A stretch of 64,000 bases of DNA. It comes from Mesorhizobium sp. Root554. GTDB lineage: Bacteria; Pseudomonadota; Alphaproteobacteria; Rhizobiales; Rhizobiaceae. The stretch is from contig NZ_LMGA01000001.1 in assembly GCF_001427025.1 (NCBI RefSeq), positions 3,451,697 through 3,515,696 of the forward strand, in the 5' to 3' direction. Below are positions 49,325 through 64,000 of this stretch, in pieces (the stretch's first letter is position 1; every line of letters begins with the position of its first letter). The translations under genes were made by a program, and so were the position numbers. The notes beneath the pieces are model-generated. The model worked only from the letters and a program-made list of their open reading frames with translations. It was not told the DNA's origin and searched no databases.

Positions 49325-49875
49325 CAATATCAGATGCTTAGACGCTCTACGAAATCGTTGGACCCTACTGGACAAGCCATTGGCCGGAATCCACTTTCAG
49401 GAGTTGAGCGATAGCATGGGGTATCACCCTGTTGCCACCCCTTTGATCCCGCGACACTACTAGAAGCCTACAGTTCGCGGTTGGCCCTACTAATCGGCAC
49501 CGCACCCGCCGGACCTCCCCCCATCAACGGCACTGACAGTTTGGGCCGGGAGCGGGAGTCCGTGGGCGTCGGGATGTCCCGGTTTGTGCGGATTCTTGAT
49601 CTTGGGGGCTGGTTGCCCAAGGTCGTGAGGTCCGATTGCGAAAGAACCACTTGCCGTCGCAGCCTGCTTTGAACATGTAAGAATCTCTTACACGTTGCCA
49701 AACGGGCATTTCCAAGGGGGAGTTGTTGCATGCCGTGCAACAGCTGGTGTGATGCTCTTTCTCCATCGAAGGCGACGGCGGGGAGTTGAGGGTGGCGATT
49801 TTAGTGGATTGCGAGCAAGTCATTTGCGATAGACGCGTGAATACTTTTCAAGACGTTGTGGCGCTGGGGGGCGAT
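49325..49875. other. Non-coding left edge of the integrative element
   Basis: About 550 bases between the tRNA remnant and the DUF262 gene hold no supportable gene. One clear site is TGTAAGA, ATC, TCTTACA (49676-49692), a perfect 7-base dyad about 185 bases before the DUF262 start, which may be an operator. Confidence 0.55.
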
Positions 49876-51789
49876 ATGAAGCCGGATAAACTTTCCATCC
49901 ATGACCTATTTCAGAAAGAACGCAGATACACCGTTCCGCTCTACCAGCGCGCATATGTCTGGAACGAGGATGAACAGTGGCAGCCCCTCTGGGATGATAT
50001 CGAGCGGCAGGCGGACGCGTGTCTTGCGGCCGACAATGGCGTTCCACGTCGGTCGCACTTCCTCGGTGCAGTTGTCCTAAATGTCCAAAAAATCGTGGGG
50101 AGCGCGGTCGCCCGGTCGGAGGTCATTGATGGGCAGCAGCGGCTAACGACATTGCAGGTTTTCGTGGCAGCCCTTCGCGATTTCGCTGATTCCGCAGGAT
50201 CGGTGCATGCGAACAAGCTCAAACGCCTGACGATCAACGAGGATGAGAAGCCCGGCTCAGAGAGCAGCTTTAAGGTTTGGCCTACGAATGCTGATCGACC
50301 ACTGTTCCGATCGATAATGATGGCAGGCGGGACCGAAGCCTTGCTCAAGCAGCACGGCTTGACCCAAAAGAGCGAATTGCCGCGATTGATCGGTGCCTAT
50401 TCGTTTTTTCGACGCCAAGTGGAAAATTACGCGGCGGCCTCCGATGCGGAAGAAAGAGACAGGCGTATTTTCGGGCTACTGCAAGCGCTGAGAACGGGAT
50501 TGCAGCTTGTTGTCATAGAACTCGAAGAAAACGATGACCCACAAATCATCTTCGAAACGCTGAATGCGCGCGGCCAACCGCTGTTGCCGTCCGATCTAAT
50601 CCGCAACACAATCTTTCATCAGGCGTCAGTTGATCCTGCACACAGCAGCAATCCGAACTATGCCGACGAATTGTATGAGACCTATTGGCGATCCTTCGAC
50701 AACGATCGAACCCTTGTGTCCGTCAATGGCGAAGATAGGTATTGGCACACACCTGAACGGCAGGGCCGACTGACGAGGCCGCGCATTGACCTCTTCATTT
50801 TCCATTTCCTCGTGATGCAGACTGGACGTGAGCTTTCCATAGGTCACATTTTCCAAGAGTTCCGCGATTGGCGCGACCAGTCAGGCCAGACCCTGGAAGG
50901 TTTTCTGGACGAGTTAAAGCGCTACGCGGTCATTTTTCGAGGTTTGATTTCGCCCAATGGCACAGATCAGGTCTCGATTTTTGCGGGGAGATTGCGGTCT
51001 CTCGATACGAGCACCGTCTATCCGCTACTGCTTTATGTTCTTGGGCTGCCAATCGAAAAGTTGACCCTTGCTGACCGCAATCAGATTGTTTCGGATATCG
51101 AATGCTGGATGATACGGCGCTTTGTCTGCCAACTCACGAACAAGAACTACAATAAGTTCTTTGTTTCGCTCCTTGCTAAGGTCAGAGAAGTTGCCCTTGC
51201 GGCAGCGGTCAGCGCTGACGACAAACCTACCAGTGAAAAACTGGCTTCTACCGTACGCGAGGAGCTAACGAGGTCAGACGACGTAACCGTGCGTTGGCCG
51301 AATGATACCGAGTTCGAAAAAGGCTGGCTAGAGAAGCCGACTTATGTGAAATCCCGGCCAGATCGAGCAGTCATGCTATTGACGGCCATCGACAACGCGA
51401 TGCGCACCAACAAGAACGAATACAAGCATGCCCCTGAAGACGTCAGCGTAGAGCATTTGCTGCCTCAGCAAGGAAGCATAATTGACTATCCGTATCCAGC
51501 CGAACCGACCGAAACTGACGGGCTGACGCCTGCTGCGAGGCGGCAAAACATCATACATACTGTCGGCAATCTGACCTTGTTAACCCAAGCGCTTAACTCG
51601 TCCGTCAGCAACGGACCCTTTATGAAGAAGCGGCCAGCAATAGCGGCGAACAGCGAGCTTCGCCTGAACGCCCGGTTTCAGGATCACGAAATCACGCAAT
51701 GGCTGGAGCCTGAAATCACCGAGAGGGGGCGTGATCTTTTCGTTTATGCGAAGGGGCTCTGGCCCTTCCCTACTTCATCGGGCAACTGA
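49876..51789 (+). CDS. DUF262/DUF1524 (GmrSD-like) protein, probable defence nuclease
   Basis: 637 residues from ATG 49876 (MKPDKLSIHDLFQKERRY), with a G-rich ribosome site just upstream. The N-terminal DUF262 part has YQRAYVW (23-29) and the nucleotide-binding motif IDGQQR (84-89). The C-terminal DUF1524 part has the HNH-like VEHLLPQQ (H527) and NLTLLTQALNSSVSN (from 565). The same pair in GmrSD and relatives cuts DNA with modified bases, driven by NTP hydrolysis. Codon use is less GC-rich than in the core genes. It lies beside a type I R-M operon on the same element and converges on it. Confidence 0.88.
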   Translation: MKPDKLSIHDLFQKERRYTVPLYQRAYVWNEDEQWQPLWDDIERQADACLAADNGVPRRSHFLGAVVLNVQKIVGSAVARSEVIDGQQRLTTLQVFVAALRDFADSAGSVHANKLKRLTINEDEKPGSESSFKVWPTNADRPLFRSIMMAGGTEALLKQHGLTQKSELPRLIGAYSFFRRQVENYAAASDAEERDRRIFGLLQALRTGLQLVVIELEENDDPQIIFETLNARGQPLLPSDLIRNTIFHQASVDPAHSSNPNYADELYETYWRSFDNDRTLVSVNGEDRYWHTPERQGRLTRPRIDLFIFHFLVMQTGRELSIGHIFQEFRDWRDQSGQTLEGFLDELKRYAVIFRGLISPNGTDQVSIFAGRLRSLDTSTVYPLLLYVLGLPIEKLTLADRNQIVSDIECWMIRRFVCQLTNKNYNKFFVSLLAKVREVALAAAVSADDKPTSEKLASTVREELTRSDDVTVRWPNDTEFEKGWLEKPTYVKSRPDRAVMLLTAIDNAMRTNKNEYKHAPEDVSVEHLLPQQGSIIDYPYPAEPTETDGLTPAARRQNIIHTVGNLTLLTQALNSSVSNGPFMKKRPAIAANSELRLNARFQDHEITQWLEPEITERGRDLFVYAKGLWPFPTSSGN

Positions 51790-52226: not shown

Positions 52227-52935
52227 GTCTTCTTAGACGATCTTCGTAGTCCGGCATGATCGTTTCCAACGAGCGCCAAAATCGCCGTGAATGATTGTGC
52301 TCAAGAACGTGGCAAGCCTCATGGGCAATAACGTAATCAACCAGTGGCATTGGTGCCATGACCAAGCGCCAGTTTAAGCGTATGCGCCCCCGTGCATCGC
52401 AACTTCCCCAGCGCTTCGACTGGTCAACGACTTTGACGGTCGGTGTCGGAATGCCAAGCGTCTCTGCGATCATTCGCGCACGGACAGGAAAATGCTGGAT
52501 CGCATGGGCACGATACCAGTGTCTGAGACCGCTGCGGACAGCAGCGCGTTGAACGGATGCATGACCATTTGGCAGTACCGGCGCGACGAGCGTTGAACCC
52601 CTCGCGGCAATTCGGGTCACAACGGCAGTTTCGTCGGGAATGAGCTTCAAGCGATACTGACGGCCCAGATAGTGGAAGGTCTCGCCACTCACAAATTCCT
52701 TTGCGACCGGCTGCCCGCCAAGCTCTCTGCACGCCGCCTGTTTGCGAAGCAGCCAAGCGCCTTTCTTGCGAACGATGCCAAGGACGCGATCATCATCCAG
52801 GTCCGAGGGTGCGAGGACGCGCACCCCATCAAAGCCAACCGATATCGCTACGGTTTTACGGCGCGATGTCCGCTCAATGAGGAATGCAAACGTTTCGCCG
52901 CCAAAGACGATGGAATGATGAGCCGCGTCCGTCAT
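52195..52935 (-). CDS. YgjP-type (COG1451/M48-like) zinc metallopeptidase in the hsd operon
   Basis: 246 residues. The zinc motif is HEACHVLEHNHSRRFW (HExxH with a third His three residues beyond the glutamate-side helix), and the preceding WGSCDARGRIRLNWRLVMAP is the standard signature of the YgjP family. Proteins of this family are often found beside type I restriction genes, and a role in removing the restriction subunit has been proposed, but the substrate is not known here. Its ATG overlaps the hsdR stop by 4 bases, so translation is coupled to HsdR. Confidence 0.9.
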   Translation of the reverse strand: MTDAAHHSIVFGGETFAFLIERTSRRKTVAISVGFDGVRVLAPSDLDDDRVLGIVRKKGAWLLRKQAACRELGGQPVAKEFVSGETFHYLGRQYRLKLIPDETAVVTRIAARGSTLVAPVLPNGHASVQRAAVRSGLRHWYRAHAIQHFPVRARMIAETLGIPTPTVKVVDQSKRWGSCDARGRIRLNWRLVMAPMPLVDYVIAHEACHVLEHNHSRRFWRSLETIMPDYEDRLRRLDRMGHQFIW

Positions 52936-55901
52936 CCCGCATACCGCGCGCGGGCGACATCCATAATCTTTGCCGTCGTGGCTTCGACCTTGTGCGCATC
53001 CAATCCCAAGCTGCGCAAATGCTCCTTGATGGATCGGCGCATCTGTCGTTGCACGTCCTCCTTATGATGCCAGTCAACGACCTCGGCATATTCCTCGAGC
53101 GCCTTGGTGATACCAGCAGCGCTCCGGGAGCGCTCAGCATCTGGCAGGTCGGTGTCAATGAAGGGCAGGATGGCGACAGCCGTTCCGGTGAGGCCGTCGC
53201 TCCTGCCCGCCACGCCCGAACGAATATCTGCGGCTTGCCCCACCATCGCTTCAAGCTGGGTCAACGCGCTGGCGGCGGAAACGCGAGCCTCCCGCCTGTC
53301 GTTGACGATCCTCTCTAGCTGTTCCCAGAGAGAAGCGTATGCCGTGGGATTTTCGTCGCGGTGGACGTGGATTTCTTGGCGGATGGCGTGCTCAATCTCA
53401 GCCGCCTTTGCATCACTCGACCGAAGGCTTTCCAGATGCGGACGGAAGGCAGGGTCGAGGATGTCAAACTTCACCAGCAACTGTTCGACGCCCGTCACCG
53501 AGAGATGGCTGGTGATTATCTCGCCGACTTTCGCGCCGTAGTCTTTGGGGTCAAACGGCTCCTCGTGATAGGCGCGGCGCGCAAGAACACGAATACGCGC
53601 GAGCCACTTCAAATCCGAGGGATAGGGCTCTTCCAATGCCTTTGGGTCCGGCAAGACCATGTCCATGGCTTCGGCGAAACGCAGGAAGTCGAGTTCGAAT
53701 TTGGCCCGGATATCGTCTGGACGCAGCAGTTCGACGCATGCGCCATCATCCTGACGGTCCATTCCTTCGAGCAGACGAATAGCCGCACGATGGCGACTTT
53801 CCAGAAGCTGAATTTTCTCGGACAGGGGGCGCAAAGCACTCGCTATGCCGTCCTCGTCAGAGAACATATCCAACGCATCCGAAATACGCCGATTGTCGCC
53901 CCAATAGTCGACGACCAACCCATAGGTCTTGCCATCCGCGGTGCGGTTCACGCGGGCGATGGCCTGCAAAAGCGTATGCTCCCGCAGAGGTGCATCGAGA
54001 TACAAAACCTGTTCTACCGGCGCGTCAAAGCCGGTCAGCAGCATGTCGCACACGACCAATATTCTCAGCGGGTCATCGCGCTTCTTGAACCGGCCAATCA
54101 AGGTATCGCGGTCGCGCTTGGATATGTGATGCGCCTGCAACCGGGCGCTGTCGTTGTTGGACGCGGACATGATCAGCGCGCATTCGGGCGCACCAAGCTG
54201 CCGCAAAGCTTCGACGTAGGTCACGGCGACGTCTCGGCTGACCGTCACTATTTGGGCTTTGAAACCATTCGGTTCGATAGTGCTTCGATAATGAGCGAGA
54301 ATATCCCCAGCGATGGCCTCTACACGAACTGGCGCTCCGGCCAGTTTCTCTTGAAGTCGCATGCCGCGCTTCAGCTTCTCAATCTCGTCGTCTGACAGTT
54401 CCGGGAACGTGGCCCGAATATCCCGTTCGAGATCGCGCCCATCGATCCGAAGTTGCGCATCGCGCATCTCGTAGTAGATCGGGACGGTCGCTCCATCCTT
54501 CACAGCCTGGTCGATCAGGTAGCGGTGCAGGTAATCGCCGAACACCTCACGGGTGCTACGGTCCTTCTTGTCGATGGGCGTGCCGGTGAAGGCGATCATG
54601 CAGGCGTTGGGCAGTCCTGCGCGCATCCGGGCGGCGAGCGCGCCATATTGCGTCCGGTGGGCTTCATCGACCATTACGAAGACATTCCGCGCCTTGGAGA
54701 TGACCGACGAGCGTTTCGGCACGGCGCTGTGAAACTTATGGACGGTCGTCAGAACGGTCGTTCCAGCGCCACCGGACAAAGCTTTGCGGAGCGCGTCTCC
54801 GCTTTCGGCCTGTATGGGGTTGGCAAAGCCTGAGCGCTGGAATTGTCCGGTGATCTGGTCGTCAAGGTCGTTTCGATCGGTGACGATAACAATCGTAGGA
54901 TTTTCGGCTTCGGGCAGGCGACGTAACTTGGTCGCAAGAAACACCATCGTCAGCGATTTACCGGAGCCTTGGGTATGGTGGATGACGCCGCCACGGCGCT
55001 GCGGATTGGGTGCGGTCCGGATGCGCTCAATCGCCTTGCCGACGGCAACGAATTGCTGATAGCGCGCCAGCTTCTTGATGCGCCGCCCGTCGATGGTTTC
55101 GAACATCACGAAGTTGCGGATGAGATCGAGCAGATTGGCAGGTGCGAGAAGCCCTGCAAGCAAGATGTCCTGCCCGGTTGGCGTTCGACCCAATTGAGCA
55201 GCGAGCGCGTCGAGCGTAAGTGGATAGGGGTCTTTCCATTCGGCCCATTGGCGAGCGGGCGTCAGCGTCGTGCCGTACTTTGCTACGTCGCGCGCCAGAG
55301 CGATAGAAACCTGCGCCGTCTCGAACAGGCGGGGAGCGCCAAGCCCGGCGAATTCATCGCGGCTTTCATAACGGCGGAACTGACGGATCGCCTCGCCCAT
55401 CGGATCGGCCAATAACGGCGATTTGCATTCGATAGCAGCGAGAGGAAGGCCGTTCACGTAAACGACGATATCGGGAATGATGTCCTGCCGCGCGCCCTTG
55501 ATCGCGACTTGCCGCGCGAACTCGAACATATTGGCGGACGGGTTATCGAAATCGAAAAACCGCACATTGCGGTCCTGCCGCCTGCCATCTTCAGTATGGG
55601 GGGCAGTCACGCCATAGGTGAGGGCCGTATAGGCGCTTTCATTGGCCTCCATCACATCGACGGCTGTAACGCGCGTGACGGCCGCAACGGCGCGGCGAAC
55701 GCCATCCTCGCCAAGCCAAGGGTTAAGGCGCTTCAGGCATTCTGAAAGGCGAACCGTCAGAACCGGTTCGGTTGCCAGCCCGTCGCGTAACCGCCGCACC
55801 TCTTCTGGAACCAAGAGCTTATAATCGAACAGAACACGCAGCAGATCGACCGCGGGTTCCTCCACCCATTCGCGCTCAAGCTGTTTGCTGGTGTCGCTCA
55901 T
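52932..55901 (-). CDS. hsdR: Type I restriction endonuclease subunit R
   Basis: 989 residues. A PD-(D/E)xK nuclease domain has D144 and E158-C-K160 (IIPDIVVY, AAIECKSPL). The translocase has Walker A HTQGSGKSL (309-317) and the DEAH box VDEAHRTQYG (411-420), then FTGTP and the later helicase motif QAIARVNR. It cuts unmodified DNA after ATP-driven translocation. The ATG overlaps the hsdS stop by 4 bases. The sequence looks intact. Confidence 0.96.
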   Translation of the reverse strand: MSDTSKQLEREWVEEPAVDLLRVLFDYKLLVPEEVRRLRDGLATEPVLTVRLSECLKRLNPWLGEDGVRRAVAAVTRVTAVDVMEANESAYTALTYGVTAPHTEDGRRQDRNVRFFDFDNPSANMFEFARQVAIKGARQDIIPDIVVYVNGLPLAAIECKSPLLADPMGEAIRQFRRYESRDEFAGLGAPRLFETAQVSIALARDVAKYGTTLTPARQWAEWKDPYPLTLDALAAQLGRTPTGQDILLAGLLAPANLLDLIRNFVMFETIDGRRIKKLARYQQFVAVGKAIERIRTAPNPQRRGGVIHHTQGSGKSLTMVFLATKLRRLPEAENPTIVIVTDRNDLDDQITGQFQRSGFANPIQAESGDALRKALSGGAGTTVLTTVHKFHSAVPKRSSVISKARNVFVMVDEAHRTQYGALAARMRAGLPNACMIAFTGTPIDKKDRSTREVFGDYLHRYLIDQAVKDGATVPIYYEMRDAQLRIDGRDLERDIRATFPELSDDEIEKLKRGMRLQEKLAGAPVRVEAIAGDILAHYRSTIEPNGFKAQIVTVSRDVAVTYVEALRQLGAPECALIMSASNNDSARLQAHHISKRDRDTLIGRFKKRDDPLRILVVCDMLLTGFDAPVEQVLYLDAPLREHTLLQAIARVNRTADGKTYGLVVDYWGDNRRISDALDMFSDEDGIASALRPLSEKIQLLESRHRAAIRLLEGMDRQDDGACVELLRPDDIRAKFELDFLRFAEAMDMVLPDPKALEEPYPSDLKWLARIRVLARRAYHEEPFDPKDYGAKVGEIITSHLSVTGVEQLLVKFDILDPAFRPHLESLRSSDAKAAEIEHAIRQEIHVHRDENPTAYASLWEQLERIVNDRREARVSAASALTQLEAMVGQAADIRSGVAGRSDGLTGTAVAILPFIDTDLPDAERSRSAAGITKALEEYAEVVDWHHKEDVQRQMRRSIKEHLRSLGLDAHKVEATTAKIMDVARARYAG

Positions 55902-57143
55902 GCCGCTTGGCCGGCTTTGCCGCGATGCCGCGCAATGATGCTGTCTGGAAGGCGAACGCGACCCGAGAGGAGTTCTTGGGCAAGGGACGATTGAGTTTGA
56001 TAAAGCACGTCTAGTTTTGCACGCTCGGCCGTTAGTCGGGCTTCTATCGTTTCATACAGATCAGCAAAGCTGTCCTGCTCAGCTTTTGGGGGCACCGCAA
56101 TCGAAAATCGCTTGAGCGTTTTTGAATTGATATTCCATTGAGAAACGCCCGGCGTAGCGAGCGTCTTTAACCTCTCCTGAGTTCGTGGCAGGTTCAAGAT
56201 GGCATTAAGCCAGTATGGATTTACACTATTTTTCACGACAAGGCGGATCAGATAGCTTGCAAAGACGACCTCCGTGCTTGGGTCATGTCTGACGATCCCT
56301 GTTTTGCCAACAAGAGCTTGGCTGTTTGTCCTGTTGAACAGAATGTCACCCTTCTTTATTGAGCATGAGGCGATTTCGGCGGGTGTCACGTCAGTTGACT
56401 TCAGCCCGCGGACATCCACGTTTACTTTACCATCCCCGATATCCGGCATCCTCAAGACTGGCACTGTGCCTTTGCCATCCAGTGGGATCGAAAGCCCATA
56501 TTGGCATTGCCGGACAAGTGAACCGATCGCCTGTACATGCCATTTCGGTTGCTTCTCGCTGCCCTGAAAGTCTCTGGTCAGCTCGTTGCGGCTCTCAACT
56601 AATGCCTCAATCAGCGTCCTCGTCTTTGCAATAGCTTCCACCACCACGCCTAAGACCTCGGCAATCGCGCTCTGTTCAGCGAGCGCTGGAAGTGGCATTT
56701 GAAATGCCCCCACATCGCGTGGACGAATAGCCGCGTAGTTGGTCGAGCCGACAGCATCGACTTGTCGATGAAGTCGGCCATCCCGAATGATATGATCAAA
56801 CCAATCCAACACTACCCTGGATTGGTTGATCTCAAATAAGAAGTAGTGACCACTGACAATCGCCCCGTCACTTTCAATTGGTATCAACCCAAAACCACCA
56901 ACTTTGGCGTCGATTTCCGCAACGAGAAGGTCGTCGGCCCTGCAAAGTTTCTGGCGCTTTGTTTTTATGTAACTCCCAGGCACCTTATCGCGAGGTTCAA
57001 CGCCTTGGTTTCTCACCCGTGCAGTGACACGGTGATAGTGAGTGCTGTCATCAATTTCGATCCAACTCACGCGTTCGCGAATTACTTCCCGCAGGCGGAT
57101 GATCGGCCATTCAGCAGCAACCGGGCCAAATCGGGTAAACGCT

Positions 57144-57154
<11 letters not shown>
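55898..57154 (-). CDS. hsdS: Type I R-M specificity subunit S, full length
   Basis: 418 residues with two target-recognition domains. TRD1 covers about 1-155, a central helical spacer about 156-195 (LPALAEQSAIAEVLGVVVEA), TRD2 about 200-360 and a distal spacer about 361-400 (VPPKAEQDSFADLYETIEAR). It sets the bipartite DNA target for HsdM and HsdR. The ATG is 11 bases inside hsdM. A second, half-size S gene heads the same operon. Confidence 0.94.
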
Positions 57155-58670
<1,516 letters not shown>

Positions 58671-58677
58671 GTTTTCC

Positions 58678-59310
58678 TCAATGGTTCTGATTGTCGCCAA
58701 ACAGGCGAGCGTCAATCAGACGCCGCGCGAGTGAGCGGCGGATTTCGGCAGCCTCTAGGGCGGTGCGGTAGGCGATTTGCGCGTCCTTAACGAGGGCGGC
58801 GATGCGCTGCTGTTCGTTCAGCGGCGGCAGATTGATTTCGAGCTTGGCAAGGTCTTTGGGCGACAGGGACAGCAGCGTCGTTGCCCCCCTTCGCAAAACC
58901 TCGATCTTTGGGCGAAAGACATCGCTCGATAGGATCGCAAACAGGGCGCCCCCCGTCACATCGGTGCCGGGTCGCACGACGATGATGTTTGCACTGGCGA
59001 TGGCTCCTGCGGTCTCATCACCCACGAGGCCGAACTTCAACAGCGTCCCGCGTCCGGTGACGAGCACATCGTCGGCCTGAACCGCATAGGTCATAGCTTT
59101 GGACAGGGACGAAAAACCGACGGTGTCCAACGCTTCGCGCGGAGCGACAGCGCCGTCCTGAAGGTCGCGCACGCCGATAACCGGAAGCCTTTCCCCCGGA
59201 CGAACCACCGTTTCCTCGCGCGACACCCCAACCCCGGCAAAAACTTCTGCGACATCGAGCAGGCGCGCGGTTAGACCGATTGGAGTTGCTATTTCTTCGT
59301 GTTGGATCAT
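58678..59310 (-). CDS. Half-size type I specificity subunit (single TRD), first gene of the hsd operon
   Basis: 210 residues from ATG 59310. It holds one target-recognition domain (about 1-165) and one conserved helical spacer (168-205, LPPLNEQQRIAALVKDAQIA). The operon also carries a full HsdS of different sequence. Half S proteins can pair as dimers and recognise palindromic targets. The start sits where a consensus promoter would begin transcription, so the mRNA is predicted to be leaderless; ATG 59316 is an alternative start. Whether both S proteins share one HsdM is open. Confidence 0.85.
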   Translation of the reverse strand: MIQHEEIATPIGLTARLLDVAEVFAGVGVSREETVVRPGERLPVIGVRDLQDGAVAPREALDTVGFSSLSKAMTYAVQADDVLVTGRGTLLKFGLVGDETAGAIASANIIVVRPGTDVTGGALFAILSSDVFRPKIEVLRRGATTLLSLSPKDLAKLEINLPPLNEQQRIAALVKDAQIAYRTALEAAEIRRSLARRLIDARLFGDNQNH

Positions 59311-59316
59311 GGGCAT

Positions 59317-59345
59317 AGAATAGCCGTAGCACGCTACCATGTCAA
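59317..59345 (-). promoter_or_regulatory. hsd operon promoter, predicted leaderless
   Basis: -35 TTGACA (59345-59340, perfect consensus), a 17-base spacer and -10 TATTCT (59322-59317). The seventh base after the -10 is the A of the ATG at 59310. The spacer contains the palindrome GTAGCACGCTAC (59326-59337). Confidence 0.7.
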
Positions 59346-59371
59346 GACAAAATAAAACCGTAACAAGCTAC
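59326..59371. promoter_or_regulatory. Two operator-like repeats CCGTARCAMGCTAC between hsd and the HTH gene
   Basis: GTAGCACGCTAC (59326-59337) and GTAACAAGCTAC (59360-59371) share the pattern GTARCAMGCTAC, both preceded by CC. Each is nearly palindromic. They start 34 bases apart; one is inside the hsd promoter and the other lies upstream of the divergent gene's promoter. Confidence 0.6.
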
Positions 59372-59395
59372 GGCACATGAGTTCAAGATTGGTGG

Positions 59396-59472: not shown

Positions 59473-59727
59473 ATGGGATCACGTGCGAGGCCGAGCGGCC
59501 TCACAATCAACGAGCGCGACGTGGCGCTTATTCGGGGCATGATCGAGCGGGGCGACCGCCATCACGATATCGCAGCGTTCTTCGGGCTCAATCAGGGCCG
59601 GATCGCTGAAGTAAAGGATGGGACGCGGTTTCCGGAAGTTCTGCCGGCGAGTCCAGACGAACTTCCGCCCAAGGGGCCGTATCTCACCCCGAAGGTAACA
59701 TGGATGGAAAACCGACTGGTCTCGTAA
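59473..59727 (+). CDS. Small helix-turn-helix protein, candidate controller of the hsd operon
   Basis: 84 residues from ATG 59473, with AGGAGC five bases upstream; upstream in-frame ATG codons lack a ribosome site. The central helix-turn-helix reads GDRHHDIAAFFGLNQGRIAE and resembles small sigma-region-4/Xre-like HTH proteins of rhizobial elements. The C-terminal part is Pro-rich. It is divergent from the hsd operon, and two near-identical palindromic sites lie between them, as for R-M controller proteins. Its role is inferred from position. Confidence 0.65.
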   Translation: MGSRARPSGLTINERDVALIRGMIERGDRHHDIAAFFGLNQGRIAEVKDGTRFPEVLPASPDELPPKGPYLTPKVTWMENRLVS

Positions 59728-60271: not shown

Positions 60272-61435
60272 ATGCCTAGCCTACGTCTTACCCGCCGCGC
60301 CATTGACGACATTCCGTTCTCTGCCAACGGCCAAGTCCTCTACCGTGATACGCTGCTTTCCGGCTTCGGTCTTCGGGTCGGCAGCCGCTCCAAGGTCTAT
60401 TTTGCCGAAGGGCAGGTGAACCGTGACACCCGACGCGTCACCATTGGTCGCGCGGACCTCTTTGCACCGGAGGTGGCCCGCAAGAAGGCGCTCGCCTTGC
60501 TGGGCGAAATGGCCGAGGGCCGCAACCCCAATGAAGAAAAGCGCAAGGAAACGGTTGAGCGCGTCACGCTCGCCGTGGCCTTCGAACGCTTTTTCGAGGC
60601 GCGCAACAAGCTGTCGCCGCACACCGTCACCAATTACGGGCGCACCGCCAAGCTCTACCTCAAGGCATGGCGCAAAAAGCCCATGAACCAGATCACCCGA
60701 CAAATGGTGCTGGCCAAGCATCAGGAGATTGCCAAGGCGCATGGCGAGGTGACGGCCAACAATGCGATGCGGCACCTCCGCTCGGTCTATAACTTCATTG
60801 CCGCCACCCAGGACGATTTCCCGCCGAACCCGGTGCTGATCCTTTCGCAGGCTCGCGCTTGGTATCGCGAGCGGCGTCGGCAAACTTTAGTCACTGCACT
60901 GGACCTGCCCATGTGGTGGCAAGCCGTCATGGCTGAACCGGATTATTCCCGCGACTTTCTGCTCACGGCACTGTTCACTGGCATGCGCCGGGGAGAGCTG
61001 ATGAAGCTCCGGTGGGACAATGTGGAGCTGCAAGCGCGGACCTTGCACTTGCCCACCACCAAGAATGGCGACCCGCTGAACCTGCCGCTGTCGGCATTCA
61101 TTGCGGACCTGCTGACCAAGCGCAAGGAGGCGGCGGACGGCTCACCTTGGGTGTTCCCCGGCCCCGGCAAGAACGGTCACCTCGTGGAGACCAAAAAGTT
61201 CCTGCTTCGCGTCACCACAGGGTCAGGCGTCAGCTTCACCCTGCATGATCTGCGTCGCACCTTTATCACCATCGCCGAAAGCTTTGACGTTCCCTACTAC
61301 GCGCTCAAGCGGCTTCTGAACCACCGCGCCAACGGCGACGTCACGGGCGGCTATATCGTGGTCAACGCCGAACGGTTGCGCGTCCCGGTTGAACTGGTTG
61401 CGGCCCGGATCTTGGAGTTGGCCAATGTCAGTTAG
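60272..61435 (+). CDS. int: Tyrosine-type integrase of the element
   Basis: 387 residues with a strong ribosome site (CAGGAGGTC). The N-terminal DUF4102-like arm domain (residues 1-90) is typical of tRNA-targeting integrases, followed by a core-binding domain (100-190). The catalytic set is R239 (TGMRRGEL), H325 and R328 (HDLRRTF), H351 (LNHRANGD) and Y361 (GGYIVV). It should excise and insert the element at tRNA-Thr. It lies about 11 kb from the attachment junction at 49267; many elements keep int next to one end, so the other end may be on the right. Confidence 0.94.
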   Translation: MPSLRLTRRAIDDIPFSANGQVLYRDTLLSGFGLRVGSRSKVYFAEGQVNRDTRRVTIGRADLFAPEVARKKALALLGEMAEGRNPNEEKRKETVERVTLAVAFERFFEARNKLSPHTVTNYGRTAKLYLKAWRKKPMNQITRQMVLAKHQEIAKAHGEVTANNAMRHLRSVYNFIAATQDDFPPNPVLILSQARAWYRERRRQTLVTALDLPMWWQAVMAEPDYSRDFLLTALFTGMRRGELMKLRWDNVELQARTLHLPTTKNGDPLNLPLSAFIADLLTKRKEAADGSPWVFPGPGKNGHLVETKKFLLRVTTGSGVSFTLHDLRRTFITIAESFDVPYYALKRLLNHRANGDVTGGYIVVNAERLRVPVELVAARILELANVS

Positions 61436-62225: not shown

Positions 62226-62504
62226 ATGCAATCAATCAGTCAGCATCGCGCTCGTAAGGGCGCGATCTTTTCTTCGGACCAGCAACCGCAACAGCAGATG
62301 GAGCGGTTCCTGACGACCGGGCAAGTGGCCACCCTTACGGGTGTCAGCGAATCCTATCTCGAAAAGGGCCGCATCTACGGCTATGGCCCGCCCTTTATCA
62401 GGCTTCGCCCCGGCTCCAAGAGCGGCGCGATTCGCTATCGTCTCAGCGCCGTAATGCACTGGCTTGAAGAACGGCAATGCGACCCGGAGGCGGGTCATGT
62501 CTGA
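62226..62504 (+). CDS. AlpA/HTH_17-like DNA-binding protein
   Basis: 92 residues from ATG 62226; ATG 62298 (MERFLTTGQV) is an alternative start that keeps the whole domain. The winged-helix excisionase-type domain reads LTTGQVATLTGVSESYLEKG and then YGPPFIRLRPGSKSGAIRYR. Such proteins act as excisionases or as activators of int in islands. The stop overlaps the primase start by 8 bases, so it heads the replication module. Confidence 0.85.
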   Translation: MQSISQHRARKGAIFSSDQQPQQQMERFLTTGQVATLTGVSESYLEKGRIYGYGPPFIRLRPGSKSGAIRYRLSAVMHWLEERQCDPEAGHV

Positions 62505-64000
62505 GTCGAGCCACAAGACTTTACTCGCCTTCCTTGTCTCCCTTGCCGGTCATGGGCGAACCGACTGCTACAGCCGGTTCAACGTCCGTACTGGCAAGGG
62601 GTATCTCTTGGCCGAGGAGGCCCTGAATCAAGATGTTGTCGCCGCTCACCAGAGCGGCGAACAGCCCATCGCCATCTATCTGTTTTCCGGCGAAACAACG
62701 CGGCTCGCTGCGCTGGACATCGACAATCATGGTTCGGAACTGGACTGGCAGGAGGTGGCCAAGCGCACCCTGCCGCTTGTCGAGGATTTGCGCTCGCGGG
62801 GCATGACGCCTTTCGTTGTGCGCTCTGGCGGCGGTGCAGGCATTCATATTTGGCTGGCATGGCGAGAGCCACAGAATTGTCGGGATGTCCGCCGGCTCCT
62901 AGCGCGGATAATGCGCAAGAACGGTTTCAAGCCGGGCACGGGCGGCATAGCCAACGGGGAAATTGAGGTCTATCCGAAGCAGGATACAGTTTCGGCAGGG
63001 AAGCTCGGGAATCCCATAGCACTGCCGTTCTCTCGCAGCTCCGTCCCGCTCGATAGCGAGCTTCAGCCACGTTCCCTGAATGGCTATACGCCTGCGGCCA
63101 TCGCGGAGCTGCATGCGCCGCCTCTCGCAGCGTTGCAATCGGACGATCTTCCGGCTGACGATCAGCCCCGGCCCCTCCGCTATCCTTCGCCGCCGGACGT
63201 GGTGCTCAAGGGCGACGAGTCGCAAGCGAACGCCGCCCTTCGGCATGTTTCCGCGAACGACTATGACAACTGGATTCGGATTGGTTTCGTGCTCAAGCAC
63301 TCTTTTGGCGAAAACGGCTTCCAGCTTTGGAACGAATGGTCGAAGTCGTCTCCGAAATATCCGGGCGAAAGCGAGTGCCGAAAGGTCTGGGACAGCTTCG
63401 AGCCCGACGGCACGGTCGGCATCGGAAGCCTGTTCTATCTGGCCCAGCAAGGCGGTTGGAACGGTCCCAGCGAGCCGGAAATCCGTGAGATGAATGCCAA
63501 ATACGGCATCGTTACCCAGGGCACGAAAACCATGATCGTTGAAAAGCAGATCGACCCCGAGGAGGACAATGCATTCGTGTGGATTTCAAAGGAGGTTCTA
63601 CGGGATCGACACAGGTCAGAGAGTGTTCTTGTCTCAACAGGCAAAACGGTCGAACAAGTGCCGTTGCCGGTCTATTGGCTCTCCAGTTCCGATGCCGATC
63701 ACTATAAGCGCATTGACTTTAATCCGAGTCTGCCGCCGGGCCGCAACGGGAATACGTATAACATCTGGACTGGCTTCGCGATCAGGCCGGAACTGGGCGA
63801 CTGGAGCATCCTCAAGGAACACATCGCGGAGAACATCTGCGACGGTGATGCAGACCTGAATGAATGGCTGCTGAATTGGCTTGCCCTTGGCGTTCAACGA
63901 CCAGGAGACGTACTTGGAACGGCCCCGGTGCTCTCGGGTCTGCCCGGTGTCGGCAAGGGCATCCTCGCCCATAGCTATGGAAGCCTGTGGGGACGGCACT
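62497..64000 (+). CDS. Archaeo-eukaryotic-type primase fused to helicase; partial
   Basis: 501 codons are in the window and the frame is open at the right edge. The N-terminal AEP primase domain shows the metal-binding LDIDNHG (D74, D76), RSGGGAGIHIWLAW (109-122) and EVYPKQD with GKLGNPIALPF (157-178). A PriCT-2-type segment follows (NWIRIGFVLKHSFGENGFQL, about 256-275). Near the cut end a Walker A GLPGVGKG (481-488) begins the DUF5906-like/SF3 helicase domain. It should start replication of the element after excision. The AEP motif resembles that used in TOTE conflict systems. Confidence 0.88.
   Translation, partial: MSESSHKTLLAFLVSLAGHGRTDCYSRFNVRTGKGYLLAEEALNQDVVAAHQSGEQPIAIYLFSGETTRLAALDIDNHGSELDWQEVAKRTLPLVEDLRSRGMTPFVVRSGGGAGIHIWLAWREPQNCRDVRRLLARIMRKNGFKPGTGGIANGEIEVYPKQDTVSAGKLGNPIALPFSRSSVPLDSELQPRSLNGYTPAAIAELHAPPLAALQSDDLPADDQPRPLRYPSPPDVVLKGDESQANAALRHVSANDYDNWIRIGFVLKHSFGENGFQLWNEWSKSSPKYPGESECRKVWDSFEPDGTVGIGSLFYLAQQGGWNGPSEPEIREMNAKYGIVTQGTKTMIVEKQIDPEEDNAFVWISKEVLRDRHRSESVLVSTGKTVEQVPLPVYWLSSSDADHYKRIDFNPSLPPGRNGNTYNIWTGFAIRPELGDWSILKEHIAENICDGDADLNEWLLNWLALGVQRPGDVLGTAPVLSGLPGVGKGILAHSYGSLWGRH

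What the first reader, a model, noticed from the sequence alone, without database searches (positions are those of the whole stretch)
55898..59310. Type I operon with one full and one half specificity subunit around a single HsdM
Order half-S, M, full S, R is unusual. The half S could pair with itself to methylate a palindromic target, or combine with M to compete with full S and change or block restriction. It may be a methylation-only branch of the system.
Basis: partly seen in the sequence, partly recalled or inferred. Interest (0 to 1): 0.65.

Follow-up and report, generated by a model that had tools for sequence, protein, structure and literature searches.

The report
Conserved half-size specificity subunit in restriction enzyme
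A bacterial DNA-cutting defence system carries, besides its usual swappable DNA-recognition subunit, a half-size one that changes little between species, which points to a dedicated extra enzyme part of still unknown role rather than a second target reader.

Summary
On the minus strand lie half-S (58678-59310), HsdM (57144-58670), full HsdS (55898-57154), HsdR (52932-55901) and a YgjP-type peptidase, all intact. Eleven alphaproteobacterial loci found with the half-S have the same order; there half-S, M and R are conserved (median pairwise identity 80, 95, 92%) while full S is not (33%, reshuffled domains). Half-S ORFs also precede hsdM in other HsdM lineages; in trees they group together, and most share an Arg-Gly dipeptide in one loop (27 of 28, against 5 of 92 half-domains of long S subunits). 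The kind is published: S. xylosus hsdS_short-hsdM-hsdS_long, where the long-S motif is poorly methylated without the short subunit, and B. licheniformis BlihIA, where the half-S co-purifies with the enzyme and one new motif is seen. Most likely the half-S is a dedicated fourth subunit that helps assembly or DNA engagement while the long S sets the target. A palindromic methylation-only branch is less likely but untested here. New: the alphaproteobacterial clade, the fixed-versus-variable contrast, the Arg-Gly signature, and a conserved divergent small gene with operator-like palindromes in the half-S promoter.

The parts
58678..59310 (-). half-S (HsdS-short), 210 aa: one TRD-like domain plus one long helix; Arg87-Gly88 loop
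   Evidence: PF01420; AlphaFold2 model pLDDT 84.6; best structural match a stand-alone half-S 'Esub1' 8vsr, Z 19.2 over 183 residues; conserved in 12 loci
57144..58670 (-). HsdM, 508 aa, NPPF motif
   Evidence: PF12161 and PF02384; best PDB sequence matches 7vru_A and 7vru_B
55898..57154 (-). full HsdS, 418 aa, two TRDs; hypervariable between loci
   Evidence: PF01420; median 33% identity over 66 pairs of loci
52932..55901 (-). HsdR, 989 aa
   Evidence: HSDR_N, SWI2_SNF2, TIGR00348
52195..52935 (-). YgjP-like metallopeptidase, last gene of the conserved block
   Evidence: PF01863 E 1.7e-58; 65-96% identical in the 11 relatives
59473..59727 (+). divergent 84-aa protein, probable small DNA-binding regulator (inference); no significant Pfam match
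   Evidence: matched in 11 of 11 relatives; 73-92% identical in the 9 relatives aligned; Pfam KORA only at E 0.13
59317..59345 (-). promoter-like site of half-S, TTGACA-17-TATTCT, ending 6 nt before the ATG (possible leaderless mRNA)
   Evidence: TTGAC kept in 12 of 12 loci
59325..59338 (.). operator-like palindrome between -35 and -10
59359..59372 (.). second operator-like palindrome CGTAGCTTGTTACG upstream of -35
   Evidence: the scan also scored it as a terminator-like hairpin

Best explanation
The locus is a Type I restriction-modification operon with a dedicated fourth subunit. The half-S belongs to a family of stand-alone single-domain S proteins encoded directly before hsdM. Most likely it joins HsdM and/or the long S through its long helix. 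It then helps the complex assemble or hold DNA through a fixed contact (Arg-Gly loop), while the exchangeable TRDs of the long S alone decide which sequence is methylated and cut. Shown here: intact gene, conserved neighbours, purifying selection, predicted fold, contrast with the variable long S, Arg-Gly signature. Inferred from two published systems with a half and a full S: membership in the complex and need for proper methylation. The exact contact and step are unknown.
For: Same five-gene order plus divergent small gene in 12 of 12 loci. Over 66 pairs the median identity is half-S 80, M 95, R 92, full S 33%; 7 N-TRD and 5 C-TRD types of full S sit beside one half-S type. Half-S dN/dS 0.07-0.25. 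Among HsdM loci found without using half-S (best 30 delivered per call), a half-S ORF precedes M in 14 of 36 (counting L042 behind an inserted ORF and L067 partial) and in 10 of 28 (three of these frames are 302-335 aa long). A clostridial half-S matches 8 of 398 genomes of the window's phylum; its three best hits are stand-alone half-S genes before M-like genes, ahead of the five longer frames. In a tree with long S proteins that resemble half-S most, 25 half-S rows group with only one long-branched long-S half among them (100/98). Arg-Gly loop: 27 of 28 half-S against 5 of 92 long-S half-domains; later 2 of 3 and 8 of 8 new ones. Published: the S. xylosus short subunit is needed for proper methylation of the long-S motif; BlihIA half-S co-purifies with the His-tagged HsdR complex and one new motif is seen.
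Against: No biochemical or methylome data for this clade. The staphylococcal model is distant: in its relative L080 the half-S lacks the Arg-Gly loop and HsdM is 36% identical. In that study adding the short gene back in trans failed, and its expression from a plasmid was toxic, so the effect was shown by omission only; without it methylation was partial for one system. One origin of the arrangement on the HsdM tree is disfavoured though not rejected (AU p 0.085 and 0.156), so function may differ. HsdM relatives of 46-59% identity have no half-S gene: 0 of 11, 0 of 10; 5 of 20 rows of the second half-S clade lack one too. By local identity the nearest match in 397 genomes of the own order is a long S (40% over 117 residues, L003), higher than to any half-S outside the clade (29%). 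Half-S evolves faster than M and R.
Confidence: 0.6

Rival explanations
1. Half-S homodimer plus two HsdM forms a second methyltransferase with one fixed palindromic, gapped target: a methylation-only or epigenetic branch.
For: The half-S is a complete TRD plus helix unit; its TRD is conserved (61.9% or more between any two of the 12 loci); truncated or half S proteins of Type IC systems do this (passages of PMC3874165).
Against: In the two studied systems no extra palindromic motif was reported. The half-S helix aligns about 4 residues short of the long-S helices, a weak hint at other geometry. It groups with other stand-alone half-S proteins rather than with halves of long S.
Confidence: 0.17
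2. Half-S is a regulator: it competes with long S for HsdM, damping restriction, or the M/half-S complex binds the operon's own promoter palindromes.
For: It is the first gene of the operon; two palindromes lie in its promoter region; their CGTA-N6-TACG outline resembles a gapped Type I site.
Against: By eye the inner positions of the palindromes are also kept (Y and R in the sites except the degenerate second one of L030), unlike a Type I gap, and a conserved divergent small protein is the simpler operator binder. Competition should make methylation better, not worse, without half-S; the opposite was seen in S. xylosus.
Confidence: 0.13
3. Half-S is a donor cassette for recombination or phase variation of the full S gene.
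For: Extra hsdS copies serve this in inverting Type I loci (passages of PMC7394358).
Against: The window half-S is only 15-25% identical to the 18 full-S halves aligned with it; half-S keeps the same place and orientation in 12 of 12 loci. An inverted-repeat scan was not run.
Confidence: 0.03
4. Half-S is a decaying remnant of a duplicated hsdS.
For: Half length; the first 15 residues are not conserved.
Against: Open in 12 of 12 loci with dN/dS well under 1; complete domain fold predicted.
Confidence: 0.02

Closest known systems
S. xylosus hsdRSMS system (hsdS_short-hsdM-hsdS_long), PMC10030836 (passages, section 13 part 1 of 2, sections 14 and 15 read)
   Same: About 190-aa conserved S-like protein encoded directly before hsdM, variable long S after it, often on mobile elements; short S neither variable nor, by the authors' searches, part of a long S.
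   Different: hsdR upstream with its own promoter; in the S. nepalensis copy (L080) HsdM is 36% identical, the half-S lacks the Arg-Gly loop, and no YgjP-type or divergent 84-aa gene is listed beside it (incomplete gene table).
BlihIA of Bacillus licheniformis DSM13, PMC12429846 (passages, sections 6 and 9 read)
   Same: Full S plus one-TRD S in one Type I system; both co-purify; one new motif RTAC(N5)GCT; its authors call the operon organisation similar to that of S. xylosus.
   Different: Sequence not compared here; exact gene order not seen in the text I read; host Bacillus.
Stand-alone half-S 'Esub1' (PDB 8vsq; 8vsr, titled a co-crystal with Prx)
   Same: Closest solved fold to the half-S model, Z 19.2 over 183 residues.
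   Different: 23% identity; its gene context is unknown to me and no paper was found in the held library.
Canonical M-S-R Type I operons with a SprT-type peptidase (Geobacillus, Priestia, Jeotgalibaca, Rhizobium sp. BG4, Haloferax plasmids)
   Same: HsdM 50-59% identical; same M-S-R order and a SprT-type gene next to hsdR.
   Different: No half-S before M; the peptidase gene is on the other strand in three of the five.
M-S1/2 fusion and truncated-S systems (NgoAV, EcoR124/EcoDXXI deletions, V. vulnificus MTase)
   Same: Single-TRD S units that pair.
   Different: There the half-S unit is the only S; here it accompanies a full S (passages).
RptR-regulated Type I operons, PMC12255303 (passages read)
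   Same: Small repressor gene next to a Type I operon with an M48-type peptidase; palindromes in the promoter.
   Different: RptR is the first gene of its operon and binds TAGCTA; here the small gene is divergent and the palindrome is CGTAGY-NN-RYTACG; a PDB sequence search with the small protein listed no RptR.

Membership tests
Type I restriction-modification system | HsdM with N6-MTase domain, HsdS, HsdR with nuclease-type N domain and SF2 motor, in one operon | tested here: met
Type I restriction-modification system | Methylates and cuts at a bipartite gapped sequence | not testable with these tools
   no methylome or enzyme data
hsdS_short-hsdM-hsdS_long variant (S. xylosus kind) | Short single-domain S directly before hsdM, long S directly after | tested here: met
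hsdS_short-hsdM-hsdS_long variant (S. xylosus kind) | Short S conserved while long S varies between loci | tested here: met
   median 80% against 33% over 66 pairs
hsdS_short-hsdM-hsdS_long variant (S. xylosus kind) | Short S not part of long S proteins; groups with other short S proteins | tested here: inconclusive
   20 half-S rows on one side of a branch, support 43/84, 40% of 200 bootstrap trees; 25 half-S rows plus one long-branched long-S half, 100/98 (staphylococcal row left out); but a long S matches the half-S at 40% over 117 residues
hsdS_short-hsdM-hsdS_long variant (S. xylosus kind) | HsdM of the same lineage | tested here: inconclusive
   separate clades, joint clade not rejected (AU p 0.085, 0.156)
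hsdS_short-hsdM-hsdS_long variant (S. xylosus kind) | Short S needed for proper methylation of the long-S motif | not testable with these tools
   experiment in PMC10030836, not done for this clade
Inverting (phase-variable) multi-hsdS locus | Second hsdS shares TRDs with the expressed hsdS | tested here: not met
   window half-S 15-25% identical to 18 full-S halves of the clade
Inverting (phase-variable) multi-hsdS locus | Inverted repeats between the hsdS genes | not tested
   no repeat scan run
RptR-type repressor | Sequence kinship with RptR | tested here: inconclusive
   only phmmer against PDB sequences; RptR itself not compared

The most novel reading that the evidence does not exclude
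Half-S proteins with the GD-x-L-x3-RG loop are one old protein family: an overlooked fourth Type I subunit with fixed binding, found before hsdM in several HsdM lineages and in several phyla (Pseudomonadota, Cyanobacteriota, Bacillota). It would form R-M-S complexes of new stoichiometry and may be a target of phage inhibitors, as the Prx-Esub1 co-crystal title suggests.
Probability: 0.4. Interest if true: 0.75.

Novelty: new member of a known kind. Interest (0 to 1): 0.5.

Why it matters
The authors of the BlihIA paper state that models of how full and half S subunits interact within one Type I system are lacking. This clade gives a clean natural contrast: one fixed half-S beside many different long S subunits, and HsdM relatives whose operons do without it. 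Together with a testable loop signature, this turns an open question into simple deletion and swap experiments. It also warns annotators that such genes are not truncated hsdS debris.

Tried and rejected
Rejected: decaying fragment (open in 12 of 12, dN/dS low); specificity-switch cassette. Left open: palindromic methylation branch; autoregulation by M/half-S.

Led nowhere: half-S alignment against viral contigs (none); half-S protein in plasmids (11 records, all under 60% identity); first AlphaFold2 run with 11 close sequences (pLDDT 43.6, not used); paper searches for Esub1; Pfam, NCBIfam and PADLOC on the first 116-aa reading of the divergent ORF (none), Pfam on the 84-aa protein (nothing significant); PDB for the 84-aa protein (one weak 28-residue match, 'CAP repeat', E 9.5e-5, not interpreted); tRNA scan (none). 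The operator pattern is unique in the own genome, but the reversed control pattern had only two places per strand, so this is not significant by itself.

Biases and dropped rows: the 11 close relatives were found with the half-S, so its presence in them is no test; the unbiased test is (2 of 2 M relatives with 94% identity or more; judged from identical identity values these are probably the same genomes as L025 and L029). L077, L080 and L081 were chosen because they have a half-S. L082, L025 and L028 were left out of the HsdM tree, and L081 also out of the AU tests. The tree held 19 long S proteins without the closest look-alikes; one search added these (L003, L082 and others) and left out the staphylococcal half-S L080. 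One search contains poorly aligned long-S rows with very long branches. The long-S sample is not random, and its profile was built with half-S rows. The palindrome consensus was taken from the same 12 loci, with simple shuffles; L031 (29 of 500) and L033 (37 of 500) are not significant. The lineage-collapsed Fisher test (17 of 19 against 5 of 92, p 8.9e-14) was made after the motif was seen; 8 of 8 half-S proteins seen later agree (of which L128 resembles L088 and three lie in frames of 302-335 aa).
Full report
The observation. On the minus strand of the window lies an operon half-S, hsdM, full hsdS, hsdR, ygjP-like peptidase gene. All frames are open and nearly contiguous. The half-S starts best at ATG 59310, the start present at the same place in 12 of 12 loci compared. 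In the own genome the Methylase_S family finds only these two proteins and the N6_Mtase family only this HsdM, so no other HsdM partner was found.

Relatives. A scan of genome contigs with the half-S gave 11 loci, all in Alphaproteobacteria judging from their record titles. All have the same order, and all carry upstream, on the other strand, a gene matching window 59473-59727. In 397 genomes of the own order no other close half-S was seen: the other 20 genomes with a match had it in frames of 385-760 aa, the best a long S with 40% identity over 117 residues. Over the 66 pairs among the 12 loci the median identity is half-S 80%, M 95%, R 92%, but full S 33%. The full S proteins are mosaics: 7 N-TRD and 5 C-TRD types at a 55% threshold. 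So the half-S is the fixed subunit and the full S the exchangeable one. Half-S dN/dS against the window is 0.07-0.25 (9 comparisons), higher than M (0.035-0.067, 9) and R (0.038-0.075, 8; the ninth was saturated) but clearly purifying. The first 15 residues vary freely. One locus, L031, has a close M (96%) but a more distant half-S (80%).

Wider survey. Searches by HsdM alone in class and phylum samples (at most 30 loci delivered per call) gave 36 loci besides the window. Of these, 14 have a half-S ORF before M, counting L042, where another ORF lies between, and L067, where only a partial ORF was seen. Of 28 further loci in the family sample, 10 do, among them both with an HsdM of 94% identity or more; three of the ten frames are 302-335 aa long. 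HsdM relatives of 46-59% identity do not: 0 of 11 and 0 of 10. On an HsdM tree of 56 rows the window clade is firm (100/100), and a second clade of 20 rows holds 15 half-S loci, including the staphylococcal one, and 5 without. One origin of the arrangement is disfavoured but not rejected (AU p 0.085; 0.156 with Nostoc).

Is the half-S a separate family? In a tree of 20 half-S and 38 halves of long S proteins all half-S rows fall on one side of one branch, with weak support (43/84; 40% of 200 bootstrap trees), while N and C halves mix; window, Nostoc and Carboxydocella half-S group with 99/93. A second tree of 25 half-S and 38 halves, now with the long S proteins that resemble the half-S most (L003, L082), puts all 25 half-S together with one long half, C_L082, that has a very long branch (100/98); the halves of L003 and L082 that carry Arg-Gly fall elsewhere (the staphylococcal half-S was not in it). 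Searching 398 genomes of the window's phylum with the Carboxydocella half-S gives matches in 8; the three best are stand-alone half-S genes (the window's own first, E 1.3e-19) and the other five lie in frames of 359-1443 aa. The three each precede an M-like gene. A loop after the Gly-Asp-x-Leu strand carries Arg-Gly in 27 of 28 half-S (12 of them from the window clade) and in 5 of 92 half-domains of long S proteins, 0 of 4 in longer frames. In half-S proteins seen later it is kept in 2 of 3 (read by eye) and in 8 of 8 (not counting two of the window clade). The exceptions are the staphylococcal half-S and L092 (Lys-Gly).

Fold. With a mixed alignment AlphaFold2 gives a confident model (pLDDT 84.6): a TRD and one long helix. 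The best match is the stand-alone protein Esub1 (8vsr, titled 'Co-crystal structure of Prx with Esub1'; Z 19.2), ahead of S subunits such as that of PacII (Z 17.4) and 1yf2 (Z 15.8). I found no paper on Esub1 in the held library; that Prx is the streptococcal phage protein paratox is my reading of the title together with PMC11129628 (passages), which does not mention Esub1.

Regulation. The half-S promoter-like site is TTGACA-17-TATTCT and ends 6 nt before the ATG, so the mRNA may be leaderless (inference). A palindrome sits between -35 and -10 and another upstream. Both score 10 or more of 12 in 8 of 12 loci, and the best site is matched by at most 2 of 500 shuffles in 10 of 12 (the consensus came from these loci). 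The upstream one also scores as a terminator-like hairpin. The divergent 84-aa protein, with no significant Pfam match, is the likeliest binder (inference).

Prior art. Schiffer et al. 2023 (PMC10030836) describe hsdS_short-hsdM-hsdS_long in staphylococci, show the short protein expressed and conserved, and find that in E. coli the long-S motif is properly methylated only when the short gene is present; adding it back in trans failed and was toxic. The BlihIA paper of 2025 (PMC12429846) reports a half-S co-purifying with the complex and one new motif, and says models are lacking. My searches for this arrangement by name found these two systems (listings); I did not find it described in Alphaproteobacteria, but the library lacks most subscription journals.

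Conclusion. The half-S is best read as a dedicated accessory subunit, not as a second specificity. This rests on comparative evidence here plus analogy to distant systems; the biochemistry is not done for this clade.

Noticed in passing
window 59473-59727 (+) and 59317-59375: Divergent 84-aa conserved gene and two conserved palindromes in the half-S promoter region, one between -35 and -10: a likely repressor-operator pair for the operon.
   Followed up: partly
window 49786-51789 (+): GmrSD-type (Type IV) restriction protein gene beside the Type I operon; L023 also has a GmrSD gene near its copy.
   Followed up: no
window 60272-61435 (+) and 62497-64000 (+): Phage-type integrase and a primase-like gene: the operon lies next to what may be an integrative, satellite-like element.
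   Followed up: no
L031 2003-2632: Half-S only 80% identical to the window's although its HsdM is 96% identical: faster change or replacement of the half-S.
   Followed up: no
L042 396-1429: A 101-aa ORF lies between half-S and hsdM.
   Followed up: no
L035, L037-L040, directly after hsdM: A RhuM-like gene (name recalled, no family search run) follows hsdM in several distant loci with and without half-S.
   Followed up: no
NZ_CP025190.1 185538-187012 (Roseomonas mucosa plasmid): A 1475-bp piece 88% identical to this hsdR, without a listed gene.
   Followed up: no
L053, L061, L064, L071: HsdM frames of 814-841 aa in one clade, possibly M-S fusions, without half-S.
   Followed up: no
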